From the NCBI GenBank assembly GCA_018823025.1, contig JAHJJI010000138.1, positions 49,320-113,319 on the forward strand: 64,000 nucleotides of DNA, given 5' to 3'. Below, one piece after another: positions 1,688-24,837 of this stretch. Made by a program: the position numbers and the translations under genes. The stretch comes from Gammaproteobacteria bacterium. GTDB lineage: Bacteria > Pseudomonadota > Gammaproteobacteria > Burkholderiales > Sulfuricellaceae. The notes under the pieces were generated by a model. It saw nothing but the letters and a program-made list of their open reading frames with translations. It was not told where the DNA came from and searched no databases. The number at the start of each line of letters is the position of its first letter. The stretch's first letter is position 1.

Positions 1688-3094
1688 CTACTGACTCTCC
1701 GGCACGACCCGATCTTGCCTTGCACATTCCGTCCCCTGCGCTGCCAATTCGCGAAGTGTCATTTCGCCGACCGAAGATTCGACTGCTTGCTGAACCCGAC
1801 CGAGCAGATCGTCGACAGGCTGCGGTGCAGGCAGTCCATCGGGCGACAAGAAGCGTTCCTCGCCGGCGGCGCGCACGGTCTCAATCACCTGTGTCACCGA
1901 TATCAGAGAGGGGTCGCGCGCCGGCATGTAGACAGGAGGATCGTCACTGCTCTGCATGATGAGCTTGCGACTTTCCAGCGCATCGAGTATCACCTCCAGA
2001 GCGTGCATCGGCACGCCGAGCAGGCGTGTAAATTCCAGCAGCGATGGCATGCGCTCGCCGGCAAGAAATCGGCCTGCAACCAGGCTCATTACCGACAACC
2101 CAACCCGCTCGCGCATCCGGTTGCTCAGTCGCGGTTCGCCACCACCGGCGTACAGGTATTCGGGGTGCTGGACGTAGAACGCGACGCTCGCGCCGAACAA
2201 CAAGATCAGCCAGTTCAGGTACAGCCAGATCATGAACAGGATCAGAATCGCCAAGCCCGAGTAAATTGCCGCGTACTGGTTCGATGACACCACGAAGGTA
2301 GCGAATGCCCATCCTGCGGTTTGCCAGGCGATCCCGCCGGCTATGCCGCCGAGTAGCGCGGGGACGAATCGGACGCGCGTGTTCGGAATGAAGATATAGA
2401 CGAAGGTGAAGGCCGCGATCACCAGCAGGTACGGGATAAGCCGACTGACCGCCTGTATGGTCTGGCCCAGTACATCGATCGCTAGCAGTTCGCGAACCAC
2501 CTCCACATTCATCACGGTAGCGGTGATTCCCAGTGCCGAAAACACCAAAATCGGACCGACCATGAGCACGCTGATATAGCGGCTGAACCTCTCTCCCAAG
2601 GGTCTGGGGCGCGGAATGTGCCAGATGTGGTTCAGCGACTCCTCGATTTTCTGCATCAGCGAGATCGAGGTGTACACGAGGAGTGCCAACCCGACTGCGC
2701 CTAGCACGCCAACATTCATTTTCTCGATGAACTGTACGATATTGTGCGCGATTTCCTCGCCCTTCTCACCGAGCGGCGCGAGAAAGTTCAGCAGCATAGG
2801 CAGGATCTGGTTGTAGACGCCGAATGCCTTCAGCACCGAGAAGCTCAGCGCGAGCAGTGGCACGATGGAAAGCAGCGTTGTGTACACGAGTCCCATCGCA
2901 CGAAGAGTGAGCTGACCGCGCGCGAGGTCATGCGACAGAACCAGCACCGTGCGTACGACCCTCAATGCGCGCGGCTTCAAAGGCGACTCCTGGACGCCCC
3001 ATACGACTTTGTCGATACGCTTCAGGAAATCCGACATATCAGATTGTGGCGCGTCCGCACGAGTTTGCGCAGCCATGCTTCCATTGTCGGCCAA
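1688..3094 (-). CDS. YihY/BrkB-family inner membrane protein
   Basis: An integral membrane protein of 468 residues in the YihY (BrkB) family, formerly misannotated as ribonuclease BN. About six hydrophobic segments lie between residues 60 and 325. They include the family-typical stretch around LVYTSISLMQKIEESLNHIW and the GGIAGGIAWQ turn. The C-terminal 150 residues are soluble and look like a winged-helix segment (SLLEFTRLLGVPMHALEVIL), an extension found in many betaproteobacterial members. It is the last gene of the glucan/trehalose run: its start at 3094 abuts the stop of the malQ-treY fusion at 3095, so it is probably co-transcribed. The molecular function of the family is unknown. Its place at the end of a compatible-solute cluster suggests an envelope or osmotic role, which is inference. 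Confidence 0.85.
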   Translation of the reverse strand: MADNGSMAAQTRADAPQSDMSDFLKRIDKVVWGVQESPLKPRALRVVRTVLVLSHDLARGQLTLRAMGLVYTTLLSIVPLLALSFSVLKAFGVYNQILPMLLNFLAPLGEKGEEIAHNIVQFIEKMNVGVLGAVGLALLVYTSISLMQKIEESLNHIWHIPRPRPLGERFSRYISVLMVGPILVFSALGITATVMNVEVVRELLAIDVLGQTIQAVSRLIPYLLVIAAFTFVYIFIPNTRVRFVPALLGGIAGGIAWQTAGWAFATFVVSSNQYAAIYSGLAILILFMIWLYLNWLILLFGASVAFYVQHPEYLYAGGGEPRLSNRMRERVGLSVMSLVAGRFLAGERMPSLLEFTRLLGVPMHALEVILDALESRKLIMQSSDDPPVYMPARDPSLISVTQVIETVRAAGEERFLSPDGLPAPQPVDDLLGRVQQAVESSVGEMTLRELAAQGTECARQDRVVPESQ

Positions 3095-22882: not shown

Positions 22883-24837
22883 GCTGCTCCTCTATTTCCG
22901 GATGCCTGTTTCAGATACACCACGCCCAGTGGTGGCAGGGCCAGCGAGAGGGAGTGATAGTGGCCTTGCGCCGCCACCGGCGAGGCCTCAACGCCGCCCA
23001 GATTGCCGACACCGCTGCCGCCGTAGATTTCAGCGTCGCTGTTGAGGATTTCCTGCCAGTAGCCGCCATGCGGCACACCAACGACGTAGTTCTGTCGCGC
23101 CACCGGCGTGAAGTTACAGACCACCAGCACGCTGTCTTCGGGATTGCGGCCATGGCGCAGGAAACTGATCACGCTTTCTTCCCAGTCGTGGAAATCCACC
23201 CAGCTGAAACCGTCGCCGGAAAAGTCTTTCTCGTAGAGCGCTGGCTCGGACCTGTAGCAGCGGTTGAGGTCACCCATCCAGCGTTGCAGGCCGCCATGCA
23301 GCGGATATTGCAGGACATGCCATTCCAGGCTTTCGTCGTGTTGCCATTCGCGTTTCTGGCCGAACTCCCCGCCCATGAACAGCAGCTTCTTGCCGGGATG
23401 GCCCCACATGTGGCCGTAGAGCAGGCGCAGGTTGGCGAATTGCTGCCATTCGTCGCCCGGCATCTTGCCAATCATCGATCCCTTGCCGTACACCACCTCG
23501 TCGTGCGACATAGGCAGGACGAAATTTTCGGTGAAGGCATACCAGATGCTGAAGGTGAGCTTTTCGTGGTGATACTTGCGGAACACCGGGTCCTGCTGGT
23601 AGTACTTCAGCGTGTCGTGCATCCAGCCCATGTTCCACTTCATGCCGAAGCCCAGGCCGCCCATGTAGGTTGGGCGCGATACCATCGGCCAGGCGGTGGA
23701 TTCCTCGGCGATGGTCAGGGTGTCCGGGTGATCGCGATACACCGCCTCGTTGAGGCCTCGCAGGAATGACATAGCCGCGAGGTTTTCCCGGCCGCCATGC
23801 TCGTTGGGGATCCACTCGCCCTCATTGCGTCCGTAATCGAGGTAAAGCATCGAGGCGACGCCGTCGACGCGGATGCCATCGATATGGTACTTGTCGAGCC
23901 AGAACAGGGCGCTGGACATCAGGAAGGCGCTGACTTCGTTGCGGCCATAGTTGAAGATGGCGCTTTTCCATTCGGGATGGAAGCCCTGACGCGGATCGGC
24001 ATGCTCGAACAGGTGGGTGCCGTCGAAATAGGAGAGACCATGCTCGTCGCTGGGAAAGTGCGAGGGCACCCAGTCGAGGATCACGCCGATACCCGCCTGG
24101 TGCAGGTGGTCGATCAGGAACATCAAGTCCTGCGGCGTGCCCTGGCGCGAGGTCGGGGAAAAATAGCCGGTGGTCTGGTAACCCCAGGAGCCAAAGAACG
24201 GATGCTCGGTGACCGGCAGCAGTTCGACGTGAGTAAAGCCCGTTTCGCGTATATGATCCGCCAGTAACGGCGCGATTTCCCGGTAGCTAAGGGAGCGATT
24301 ATCTTCCTCGGGCACCCGTCGCCACGATCCCAGATGCACTTCGTAGATCGACATTGGCGCATCGAGCGCGTTAGCCGCCCGTCGCCGCGACATCCATTCC
24401 CCGTCATTCCAAGTATAAGCCATATCCCAGACACGAGAACCAGTGAGTGGCGGAACTTCACTGAACATAGCGTAAGGGTCGGCCTTGTCGACCTGATAGT
24501 TATTTTCACGCGAAGTGATGTGATATTTGTAGCAATCTCCACTGACTATGCCCGGCACAAAGCTTTCCCATATACCGGAACCATCCGTTCGTGCGGCCAG
24601 AGGATGGGAAACCTTGTCCCATCCATTGAAATCGCCAAAGACCGTTACAGTCATGGCATTTGGCGCCCACACCGCGAAGTGCGTGCCATCTTGCCCATCT
24701 CTAGTAATGAGATGGGCTCCCAGTTTTTCGGAAAGACGGGCATGGGTTCCTTCCTTGAAAAGGAATACGTCGTGCTCGGTGAGCGAGCTGGAACTGACGT
24801 GCTGGCTGTTTTTATTCCGGGTAGCAATTTCTTCCAT
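22879..24837 (-). CDS. glgB: 1,4-alpha-glucan branching enzyme (GlgB)
   Basis: A branching enzyme of 652 residues and the first gene of the glucan/trehalose run. It introduces alpha-1,6 branches into the chain made by GlgE. A CBM48 domain covers about 40-140 (HFAVWAPNAMTVTVFGDFNGW). Nucleophile D325 is in GIRVDGVASMLYLDYGR, acid/base E378 in TIAEEST and D446 in PMSHDEVV. It is shorter at the N-terminus than the E. coli enzyme, lacking the first of the two beta domains. The ATG at 24837 is preceded by a strong AGGAGG seven bases upstream. Confidence 0.96.
   Translation of the reverse strand: MEEIATRNKNSQHVSSSSLTEHDVFLFKEGTHARLSEKLGAHLITRDGQDGTHFAVWAPNAMTVTVFGDFNGWDKVSHPLAARTDGSGIWESFVPGIVSGDCYKYHITSRENNYQVDKADPYAMFSEVPPLTGSRVWDMAYTWNDGEWMSRRRAANALDAPMSIYEVHLGSWRRVPEEDNRSLSYREIAPLLADHIRETGFTHVELLPVTEHPFFGSWGYQTTGYFSPTSRQGTPQDLMFLIDHLHQAGIGVILDWVPSHFPSDEHGLSYFDGTHLFEHADPRQGFHPEWKSAIFNYGRNEVSAFLMSSALFWLDKYHIDGIRVDGVASMLYLDYGRNEGEWIPNEHGGRENLAAMSFLRGLNEAVYRDHPDTLTIAEESTAWPMVSRPTYMGGLGFGMKWNMGWMHDTLKYYQQDPVFRKYHHEKLTFSIWYAFTENFVLPMSHDEVVYGKGSMIGKMPGDEWQQFANLRLLYGHMWGHPGKKLLFMGGEFGQKREWQHDESLEWHVLQYPLHGGLQRWMGDLNRCYRSEPALYEKDFSGDGFSWVDFHDWEESVISFLRHGRNPEDSVLVVCNFTPVARQNYVVGVPHGGYWQEILNSDAEIYGGSGVGNLGGVEASPVAAQGHYHSLSLALPPLGVVYLKQASGNRGAA

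What the first reader, a model, noticed from the sequence alone, without database searches (positions are those of the whole stretch)
1688..24837. Ten-gene glucan-trehalose supercluster combining the GlgE and TreYZ routes with membrane proteins
Tightly packed, mostly overlapping same-strand genes join the GlgE pathway (TreS-Mak, GlgE, GlgB), the TreYZ pathway (GlgX, MalQ, TreY, TreZ), GlgC, an MscS-like gene and a YihY gene. All the enzymes appear catalytically intact. The layout suggests a closed cycle: trehalose to maltose-1-phosphate to branched glucan to trehalose, with membrane proteins suggesting osmotic coupling. GlgE and TreYZ genes both occur in other bacteria; this combination and order with two embedded membrane proteins is the unusual part.
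Basis: partly seen in the sequence, partly recalled or inferred. Interest (0 to 1): 0.75.

Follow-up and report, generated by a model that had tools for sequence, protein, structure and literature searches.

The report
Trehalose-glucan operon with grafted cassette
This ten-gene bacterial cluster encodes enzymes predicted to turn a glucose polymer into the protective sugar trehalose and back into polymer, a layout many related bacteria share, but here it holds two differently descended copies of the linking enzyme, one of which was likely grafted in together with the small membrane-protein gene that follows it.

Summary
Ten tightly packed same-strand genes run GlgB, GlgE, TreS-Mak1, PF05552 membrane protein, TreS-Mak2, GlgC, GlgX, TreZ, MalQ-TreY (one fused gene), YihY. 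The combined GlgE/TreYZ route is known in Pseudomonas aeruginosa, and 18 of 45 other inspected genomes of the same order have the shared enzyme genes in the same order, 8 with the membrane gene. Uncommon features: (1) two TreS-Mak genes, found only here and in a near sister among 399 order genomes, and only here among 397 phylum genomes; (2) trees place TreS-Mak1 and the membrane gene with one operon type and seven other proteins with a second, so a two-gene cassette was likely inserted beside a resident TreS-Mak, leaving a short direct repeat at both starts; (3) the membrane gene directly follows TreS-Mak in 17 of 22 members of one TreS-Mak clade and 0 of 99 others with room to see it, suggesting a functional partner. 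Both copies look intact and under purifying selection. New variant of a known kind.

The parts
22879..24837 (-). GlgB, branching enzyme (652 aa)
   Evidence: NF003811 970 bits, over cut-off 741; nearest relative after G005 is L024 in the tree
20894..22882 (-). GlgE, maltose-1-phosphate maltosyltransferase (662 aa)
   Evidence: PF11896 and PF21702; aligns along its length to solved GlgE structures, best E 9.7e-183; nearest relative after G005 is L024
17540..20881 (-). TreS-Mak1 fusion (1113 aa), the cassette copy
   Evidence: TIGR02456 and TIGR02457 over cut-offs; falls in the PF05552-linked TreS-Mak clade
16839..17522 (-). PF05552 membrane protein (227 aa), MscS-like helices without the MscS beta-domain; cassette partner of TreS-Mak1
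   Evidence: PF05552; weak PDB MscS match to residues 99-183, E 0.014; all-helical model pLDDT 75; dN 0 against G005
13425..16790 (-). TreS-Mak2 fusion (1121 aa), the resident copy
   Evidence: TIGR02456 and TIGR02457 over cut-offs; clade with L024, G040, G235
12205..13428 (-). GlgC, ADP-glucose pyrophosphorylase (407 aa)
   Evidence: NF002023 557.7 bits, over cut-off 458; about 4 bits under the TIGR02091 cut-off
10062..12194 (-). GlgX, debranching enzyme (710 aa)
   Evidence: TIGR02100 1076 bits, over cut-off 641
8230..10065 (-). TreZ (611 aa)
   Evidence: TIGR02402 713 bits, over cut-off 539
3095..8233 (-). MalQ-TreY fused gene (1712 aa)
   Evidence: NF011077 2342 bits, over cut-off 2148; PF02446 plus TIGR02401
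1688..3037 (-). YihY/BrkB-family membrane protein (449 aa from the likely ATG; ORF from 3094)
   Evidence: PF03631, TIGR00765; start by comparison with G005
20862..20903 (-). direct repeat, copy 1: GlgE tail, spacer and start of TreS-Mak1
   Evidence: start-context alignment score 56 against the other TreS-Mak; 2000 dinucleotide shuffles max 35
16771..16811 (-). direct repeat, copy 2: likely remnant of a GlgE tail, spacer and start of TreS-Mak2
   Evidence: not significant against L024 alone
25002..25574 (+). divergent MarR-family regulator upstream of GlgB; role in the cluster unknown
   Evidence: PF12802 and PF01047

Best explanation
The window carries a ten-gene same-strand alpha-glucan/trehalose cluster that is predicted to work like the Pseudomonas GlgA-TreYZ-TreS/Mak-GlgE route and into which a two-gene cassette (a second TreS-Mak plus its PF05552 membrane-protein neighbour) was likely inserted beside the resident TreS-Mak. 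Shown by sequence: gene content, order, intact conserved columns, conservation in sister genome G005, and conflicting descent of the two TreS-Mak genes. Inferred by homology: ADP-glucose from GlgC is polymerised by a GlgA encoded elsewhere in the genome; [quoted passage not shown] TreS-Mak isomerises trehalose to maltose and phosphorylates it; GlgE and GlgB build branched glucan from maltose 1-phosphate. Inferred by analogy with P. aeruginosa: the cell holds trehalose against osmotic stress and glucan against desiccation. Inferred and untested: the PF05552 protein is a membrane partner that works with the TreS-Mak it accompanies, perhaps a tension-responsive channel or anchor, and two diverged TreS-Mak enzymes let trehalose withdrawal be tuned twice.
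For: Domains and families. Same cluster in G005. The TreS-Mak tree of 123 rows splits the two copies into different supported clades; in 31 rows, holding them together costs 248 log-likelihood units, AU p 3.9e-5. Trees of GlgB, GlgE, GlgX, TreZ, TreY and GlgC (15-36 rows) give L024 as nearest row, G005 aside, in 6 of 6; in L024 GlgE is followed directly by a single TreS-Mak and GlgC with no PF05552 gene. G433, fetched later and not in those trees, is about as near or nearer (GlgC 80% against 71%) and likewise has one TreS-Mak followed by GlgC and no PF05552 gene. The PF05552 protein groups with TreS-Mak-linked relatives. Both TreS-Mak starts share a direct repeat, score 56, 0 of 2000 shuffles reaching it (max 35), next best of the 45 gene pairs 27. 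dN/dS 0.095-0.144 in 8 genes, dN 0 in the PF05552 gene. Mak motifs in both copies (motifs recalled). GlgA and GlgP present, OtsA family not found. Network demonstrated in PAO1.
Against: No expression or biochemical data. Promoter and terminator scans gave nothing clearly beyond chance, so one transcript is assumed from spacing. The upstream 40 bp of TreS-Mak2 taken alone do not match the L024 GlgE/TreS junction beyond shuffles (24 against a shuffle maximum of 30), so the remnant reading rests on the match between the two starts in the window. The placement of TreS-Mak1 inside its clade is uncertain (nearest by path G031; sister to Comamonadaceae rows at SH-aLRT 81; its branch is long, 0.65; the PF05552 tree joins the window with G059 instead, support 91), and its first 60 residues resemble TreS-Mak2 more than four rows of its clade, so it may be partly chimeric. 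YihY dN/dS failed because G005 has stops in the extended frame. Trees are quick or FastTree builds.
Confidence: 0.77

Rival explanations
1. An ordinary tandem duplication of TreS-Mak inside the cluster followed by fast divergence of one copy, with the PF05552 gene simply caught between.
For: The two start regions share a direct repeat and a similar N-terminus (MSKTNNKN / MNKTNNNH), as a local duplication would leave; the first 60 residues of copy 1 are 62% identical to copy 2.
Against: Sisterhood is rejected (AU p 3.9e-5); residues 181-300 and 541-780 of copy 1 are closer to the G031, G361 and Variovorax rows of the PF05552-linked clade than to copy 2; the PF05552 protein groups with those that follow TreS-Mak in that clade.
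Confidence: 0.08
2. Ancestral state: the lineage once had both TreS-Mak types in one cluster and relatives lost one or the other, so no insertion happened.
For: Both operon types coexist within the order; G295 and G237 have the PF05552 gene and a full GlgC in one cluster, and G059 has a GlgC remnant after the PF05552 gene.
Against: Only this genome and G005 carry two among the 51 of 399 order genomes with TreS-Mak, and only this genome among 68 of 397 in the phylum sample (at most two candidates per genome were scored); it would require many parallel losses; backbone genes are nearest to one-copy clusters.
Confidence: 0.12
3. The PF05552 and YihY genes are passengers with no role in trehalose or glucan metabolism.
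For: 5 of 22 clade members lack the PF05552 gene; YihY next to TreY was seen in no other genome with room to see it (44 loci without, 1 with (G005), 23 without room); other PF05552 proteins lie away from TreS-Mak (9 of 9 weaker matches inspected).
Against: For PF05552: 17 of 22 against 0 of 99 with room, on the same strand, 20-128 bp downstream; no amino-acid change against G005 despite dS 0.048; two Acidobacteriota loci also hold a PF05552 gene in line after TreS-Mak and one further gene. For YihY nothing found here speaks against it.
Confidence: 0.35
4. One TreS-Mak copy has lost an activity or changed direction, so the two do different reactions.
For: Copy 1 lies on a long branch (0.58-0.65) and has M where the four solved TreS shown have Q right after the AEAN motif, and Q for H in the GDECH motif.
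Against: Only 3 of 248 strongly conserved columns deviate, median of all rows 2; the M variant also occurs in an acidobacterial TreS (L077); Mak motifs intact.
Confidence: 0.2

Closest known systems
Pseudomonas aeruginosa PAO1 trehalose/alpha-glucan system (PA2151-53 and PA2160-65; PMC8084333)
   Same: GlgE, TreS/Pep2 fusion, GlgB, GlgX, MalQ, TreY and TreZ; GlgP elsewhere; no OtsA/OtsB route (OtsA family not found here; OtsB not searched).
   Different: PAO1 has two separate operons, one TreS/Pep2, GlgA in the operon, no GlgC; here one run of genes, two TreS-Mak, GlgC in and GlgA out, MalQ and TreY fused, plus PF05552 and YihY membrane genes.
Burkholderiales single-cluster type GlgB-GlgE-TreSMak-PF05552-GlgX-TreZ-MalQ-TreY (for example Variovorax guangxiensis L047, Variovorax sp. 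L030, MAG L029, G031)
   Same: Same genes in the same order, PF05552 gene directly after TreS-Mak.
   Different: One TreS-Mak; no YihY seen after TreY where there was room; a full GlgC after the PF05552 gene only in G237 and G295, a remnant in G059.
Cluster type GlgB-GlgE-TreSMak-GlgC-GlgX-TreZ-MalQ-TreY (HGW-Betaproteobacteria-14, L024; G068, G111)
   Same: In the trees made, L024 is the nearest row (G005 aside) for the window's GlgB, GlgE, TreS-Mak2, GlgC, GlgX, TreZ and TreY.
   Different: No PF05552 gene and only one TreS-Mak. G433 of another class was fetched later and is about as near in TreSMak2, GlgC and GlgX.
Defluviicoccus trehalose/glucan genes (PMC9041414, passages seen)
   Same: GlgC, GlgA, TreS-Mak, GlgE, TreY and TreZ in one genome; one genome reported with a second treS.
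   Different: That second treS is a 1,617-bp gene without Mak; gene order not compared.
CmpX (PA1775) of P. aeruginosa, described as an MscS homologue (PMC10965496, start of abstract and passages seen)
   Same: A small MscS-like membrane protein proposed as a membrane-stress sensor. That CmpX is also a PF05552 protein is recalled, not tested.
   Different: cmpX lies by sigX, not by trehalose genes; no sequence comparison with CmpX was made here.

Membership tests
GlgE pathway of alpha-glucan synthesis | GlgE maltosyltransferase gene | tested here: met
   PF11896, PF21702; GlgE structures E 9.7e-183; 2 of 118 conserved columns deviate
GlgE pathway of alpha-glucan synthesis | a source of maltose 1-phosphate (TreS-Mak or GlgC-GlgM) | tested here: met
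   two TreS-Mak fusions over curated cut-offs
GlgE pathway of alpha-glucan synthesis | GlgB linked to GlgE | tested here: met
   GlgB and GlgE overlap by 4 bp
GlgE pathway of alpha-glucan synthesis | flux from trehalose to branched glucan | not testable with these tools
   needs biochemistry
TreY-TreZ trehalose synthesis | TreY and TreZ with a debranching enzyme | tested here: met
   NF011077, TIGR02402, TIGR02100 over cut-offs
MscS mechanosensitive channel family | MscS pore helix TM3 followed by cytoplasmic beta-domain | tested here: not met
   227 aa, only PF05552 in Pfam; predicted model all helical, no strands
MscS mechanosensitive channel family | sequence or fold similarity in the membrane helices | tested here: inconclusive
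   PDB MscS E 0.014 over residues 99-183; Foldseek MscS probability 0.99 but E 0.58 over 115 columns
MscS mechanosensitive channel family | tension-gated conductance | not testable with these tools
   needs patch clamp
P. aeruginosa-type GlgA-TreYZ-GlgE network | GlgA present, OtsA absent | tested here: met
   GlgA over cut-off on another contig; no PF00982 match in a 99.98% complete genome
P. aeruginosa-type GlgA-TreYZ-GlgE network | UDP-glucose used instead of ADP-glucose (no GlgC) | tested here: not met
   GlgC is in the cluster

The most novel reading that the evidence does not exclude
The PF05552 protein is a dedicated membrane partner of one TreS-Mak clade that makes the trehalose-to-glucan switch respond to membrane tension, and TreS-Mak plus this partner travels as a two-gene module that can be plugged into foreign trehalose operons, as happened here.
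Probability: 0.2. Interest if true: 0.7.

Novelty: new variant of a known kind. Interest (0 to 1): 0.4.

Why it matters
It corrects the idea that the ten-gene layout is exceptional and points to a narrower question that can be tested: why one TreS-Mak lineage is so regularly followed by an MscS-like membrane gene, and whether turgor sensing is tied to the enzyme that withdraws trehalose, the osmolyte. A genome that keeps the linked and the unlinked TreS-Mak side by side is a natural within-cell comparison for that question.

Tried and rejected
Single transcript signals: promoter-like and terminator-like scans were near chance level (1 promoter against 4.1 expected and 12 terminators against 12.0 in 1400-18000; 4 against 2.2 and 8 against 6.0 in 18001-25800). 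RNA families and tRNAs: none found in the window. Degenerate second copy: not supported. Simple tandem duplication: rejected by AU test. Assembly artefact: rejected by G005. Remnant of the GlgE tail upstream of TreS-Mak2 shown from L024 alone: not significant. Fold search of the membrane protein: no match at E 0.001 or better; most of the 50 rows shown were BAR-domain coiled coils of no meaning, with MscS weakly present. Literature: searches for GlgE with mechanosensitive, trehalose and gene cluster (2 papers), TreS with GlgE, tandem and two copies (none), fusion terms (3 papers), Betaproteobacteria cluster terms (1 paper) and TreS with mechanosensitive channel, maltooligosyl trehalose and operon (10 of 40 listed), beside the first search (24 papers), listed no title or start of abstract that describes a TreS-Mak/PF05552 linkage or a doubled TreS-Mak cluster; the library holds open-licence papers only, and of these I opened only parts of PMC8084333, PMC11046441 and PMC9041414. 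A table was inflated by name collisions and was redone. The homologue search of the membrane protein (3841 matches, best 120 listed) gave no genome context and was used only for the alignment.
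Full report
What is there. Ten minus-strand genes fill 1688-24837. In transcription order they are GlgB, GlgE, TreS-Mak1, a PF05552 membrane protein, TreS-Mak2, GlgC, GlgX, TreZ, a MalQ-TreY fusion and a YihY/BrkB protein. Four neighbours overlap by 4 bp; the largest gap is about 57 bp if YihY starts at ATG 3037, which is likely because the sister genome G005 has stop codons in the longer frame. A MarR-type regulator (25002-25574, plus strand) lies divergently upstream.

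Is it real and intact. G005, a 2-contig genome of the same genus, carries the same ten genes in the same order. Between the two genomes dN/dS is 0.095-0.144 for eight genes and dN is 0 for the PF05552 gene; YihY could not be computed. Against relatives, the enzymes show almost no deviation at strongly conserved columns. Both TreS-Mak copies keep the Mak HGDxHLGQ and DFEG motifs (motifs recalled).

Is the layout unusual. No. In the same order, 51 of 399 sampled genomes have a TreS-Mak at E 1e-150. I looked at the neighbourhood of 47 of these 51, the window and G005 included. Of the other 45, 18 carry GlgB, GlgE, TreS-Mak, GlgX, TreZ, MalQ and TreY in this order: G281, G361, G295, G356, G237, G149, G266, G068, G212, G352, G111, G235, G026, G075, G157, G260, G031 and G059. 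Six more (G117, G137, G265, G155, G248, G294) carry the same seven as GlgE, TreS-Mak, GlgB, GlgX, TreZ, MalQ, TreY. Eight of the 18 have the PF05552 gene directly after TreS-Mak (G281, G361, G295, G356, G237, G149, G031, G059). Two of these (G295, G237) also have a full-length GlgC next, and G059 has only a GlgC remnant there. Some fetched stretches were cut at contig or stretch ends, so these are lower bounds. Named examples are Variovorax (L030, L047), Pseudorhodoferax (L028, without GlgX or MalQ in the run) and a betaproteobacterial MAG (L029). The MalQ-TreY fusion is likewise common there and is a named NCBI family. The pathway combination is established in P. aeruginosa (PMC8084333: abstract, sections 6 and 14, part 1 of section 19 read) and reviewed in PMC11046441 (passages seen).

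What is uncommon. Two TreS-Mak genes were seen only in the window's genome and G005: 2 of 51 TreS-Mak genomes in the order sample and, in a phylum sample of 397 genomes with 68 positives, only the window's genome (G754 has a second TreS-type match about 137 kb away and without the Mak half). At most two candidates per genome were scored in these searches. A YihY gene next to TreY was seen in G005 only; 44 other loci had room and none, 23 had no room.

Where the second copy came from. A tree of 123 TreS-Mak proteins puts TreS-Mak2 with L024, G040 and G235, and TreS-Mak1 in another clade of 22 rows. Forcing the two copies together costs 248 log-likelihood units, AU p 3.9e-5 (31 rows, quick tree). 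Trees of six further genes (GlgB, GlgE, GlgX, TreZ, TreY, GlgC; 15-36 rows) give L024 as nearest relative in 6 of 6, G005 aside (the GlgX tree had no G005 row). L024 has a single TreS-Mak between GlgE and GlgC and no PF05552 gene. The PF05552 protein of the window groups with those of the TreS-Mak-linked set (96% for the set; inside it the window joins G059 at 91%). So TreS-Mak1 and PF05552 behave as a two-gene cassette sitting in an L024-type backbone. G433 of another class, fetched later and not in those trees, holds TreZ, MalQ, TreY, TreS-Mak, GlgC and GlgX in a run (GlgC 80% identical to the window against 71% in L024, TreS 83% against 87%), with no PF05552 match between TreS-Mak and GlgC, so parts of this cluster likely move between distant lineages and the true source of the backbone is open.

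The scar. The sequences around the two TreS-Mak start codons share TTTC(C)TTTAAACAG, then CACGATGA and AAGACCAACAA. The local score is 56 against a maximum of 35 in 2000 dinucleotide shuffles; the next best of 45 gene pairs scores 27. At the first copy TTTCCTTTAA is the end of GlgE; before the second copy it stands alone after the PF05552 gene, as expected if GlgE once led directly into TreS-Mak2. The upstream part of copy 2 compared with L024 alone is not beyond chance (24 against a shuffle maximum of 30), so this remains an inference. The first 60 residues of TreS-Mak1 are 62% identical to TreS-Mak2 and 45-56% to four rows of its own clade, unlike residues 181-300 and 541-780, where G031, G361 and Variovorax are closer. 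This suggests recombination at the 5' end.

The membrane protein. In the 22-row clade 17 rows have the PF05552 gene within 400 bp downstream on the same strand and 5 do not; of 101 other rows 99 lack it and 2 had no room (two of the 17 were set by hand; the 17 include the window and G005). All seven matches at E 1e-70 or better in 61 genomes lie next to TreS-Mak, while the nine weaker ones that I inspected (E 8e-40 to 1.5e-25) have no other cluster gene within the stretch fetched; the remaining weaker matches were not inspected. Two Acidobacteriota loci (L069, L077) have a more distant PF05552 gene after TreS-Mak and one further gene. The protein is 227 aa; residues 99-183 weakly match MscS (E 0.014); the AlphaFold2 model (pLDDT 75, pTM 0.54) is all helical, and Foldseek gave no match at E 0.001. 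It is therefore MscS-like in part but not an MscS family member by the beta-domain test.

How it likely works. The genome holds GlgA on another contig, two near-complete glycogen phosphorylase matches and weaker ones and no OtsA-family match. By homology, GlgC would supply ADP-glucose to GlgA; GlgX, MalQ, TreY and TreZ would turn linear glucan into trehalose; TreS-Mak would turn trehalose into maltose 1-phosphate; GlgE and GlgB would turn that into branched glucan. In PAO1 trehalose serves osmotic and glucan desiccation tolerance, and GlgE-glucan is recycled by GlgP and GlgX rather than through a simple closed loop. That the PF05552 protein tunes or anchors the TreS-Mak that it follows is my proposal and is untested.

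Verdict. A real, conserved and mostly ordinary cluster for its order, with one uncommon feature (a composite cluster holding two TreS-Mak lineages) and one lead that deserves a test (the TreS-Mak/PF05552 linkage).

Noticed in passing
window 361-1476 (+): HAF-repeat protein with PEP-CTERM sorting motif just beyond the end of the cluster.
   Followed up: no
window 25002-25574 (+): MarR-family regulator divergent from GlgB; a candidate local regulator.
   Followed up: partly
window 34926-47276 (+): SoxA/TsdA cytochrome-type protein and 5'-nucleotidase C-terminal domain protein, then a MacB-type ABC exporter, then a Wzt-like polysaccharide ABC transporter with family 2 glycosyltransferases.
   Followed up: partly
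window 59592-61121 (+): polyphosphate:AMP phosphotransferase over curated cut-off (TIGR03708).
   Followed up: no
L208 (G433, another class) 128-13852: TreZ-MalQ-TreY-TreSMak-GlgC-GlgX run with GlgC 80% and TreS 83% identical to the window, close for another class: likely horizontal transfer.
   Followed up: partly
L069 5971-7950 and L077 13500-15566: Acidobacteriota loci with TreS-Mak, then a roughly 410-420 aa gene that was not identified, then a PF05552 gene.
   Followed up: partly
L112 (G059) 18928-19269: A shortened GlgC remnant (80 residues match the C-terminal end) between the PF05552 gene and GlgX: GlgC decay in a related cluster.
   Followed up: partly
G031 (L111), G116 (L172), G260 (L176): A GlgC match lies upstream of GlgB instead of after TreS-Mak (59% in G031; 36-38% and cut by the stretch edge in G116 and G260), so GlgC has varied in place within this cluster type.
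   Followed up: no
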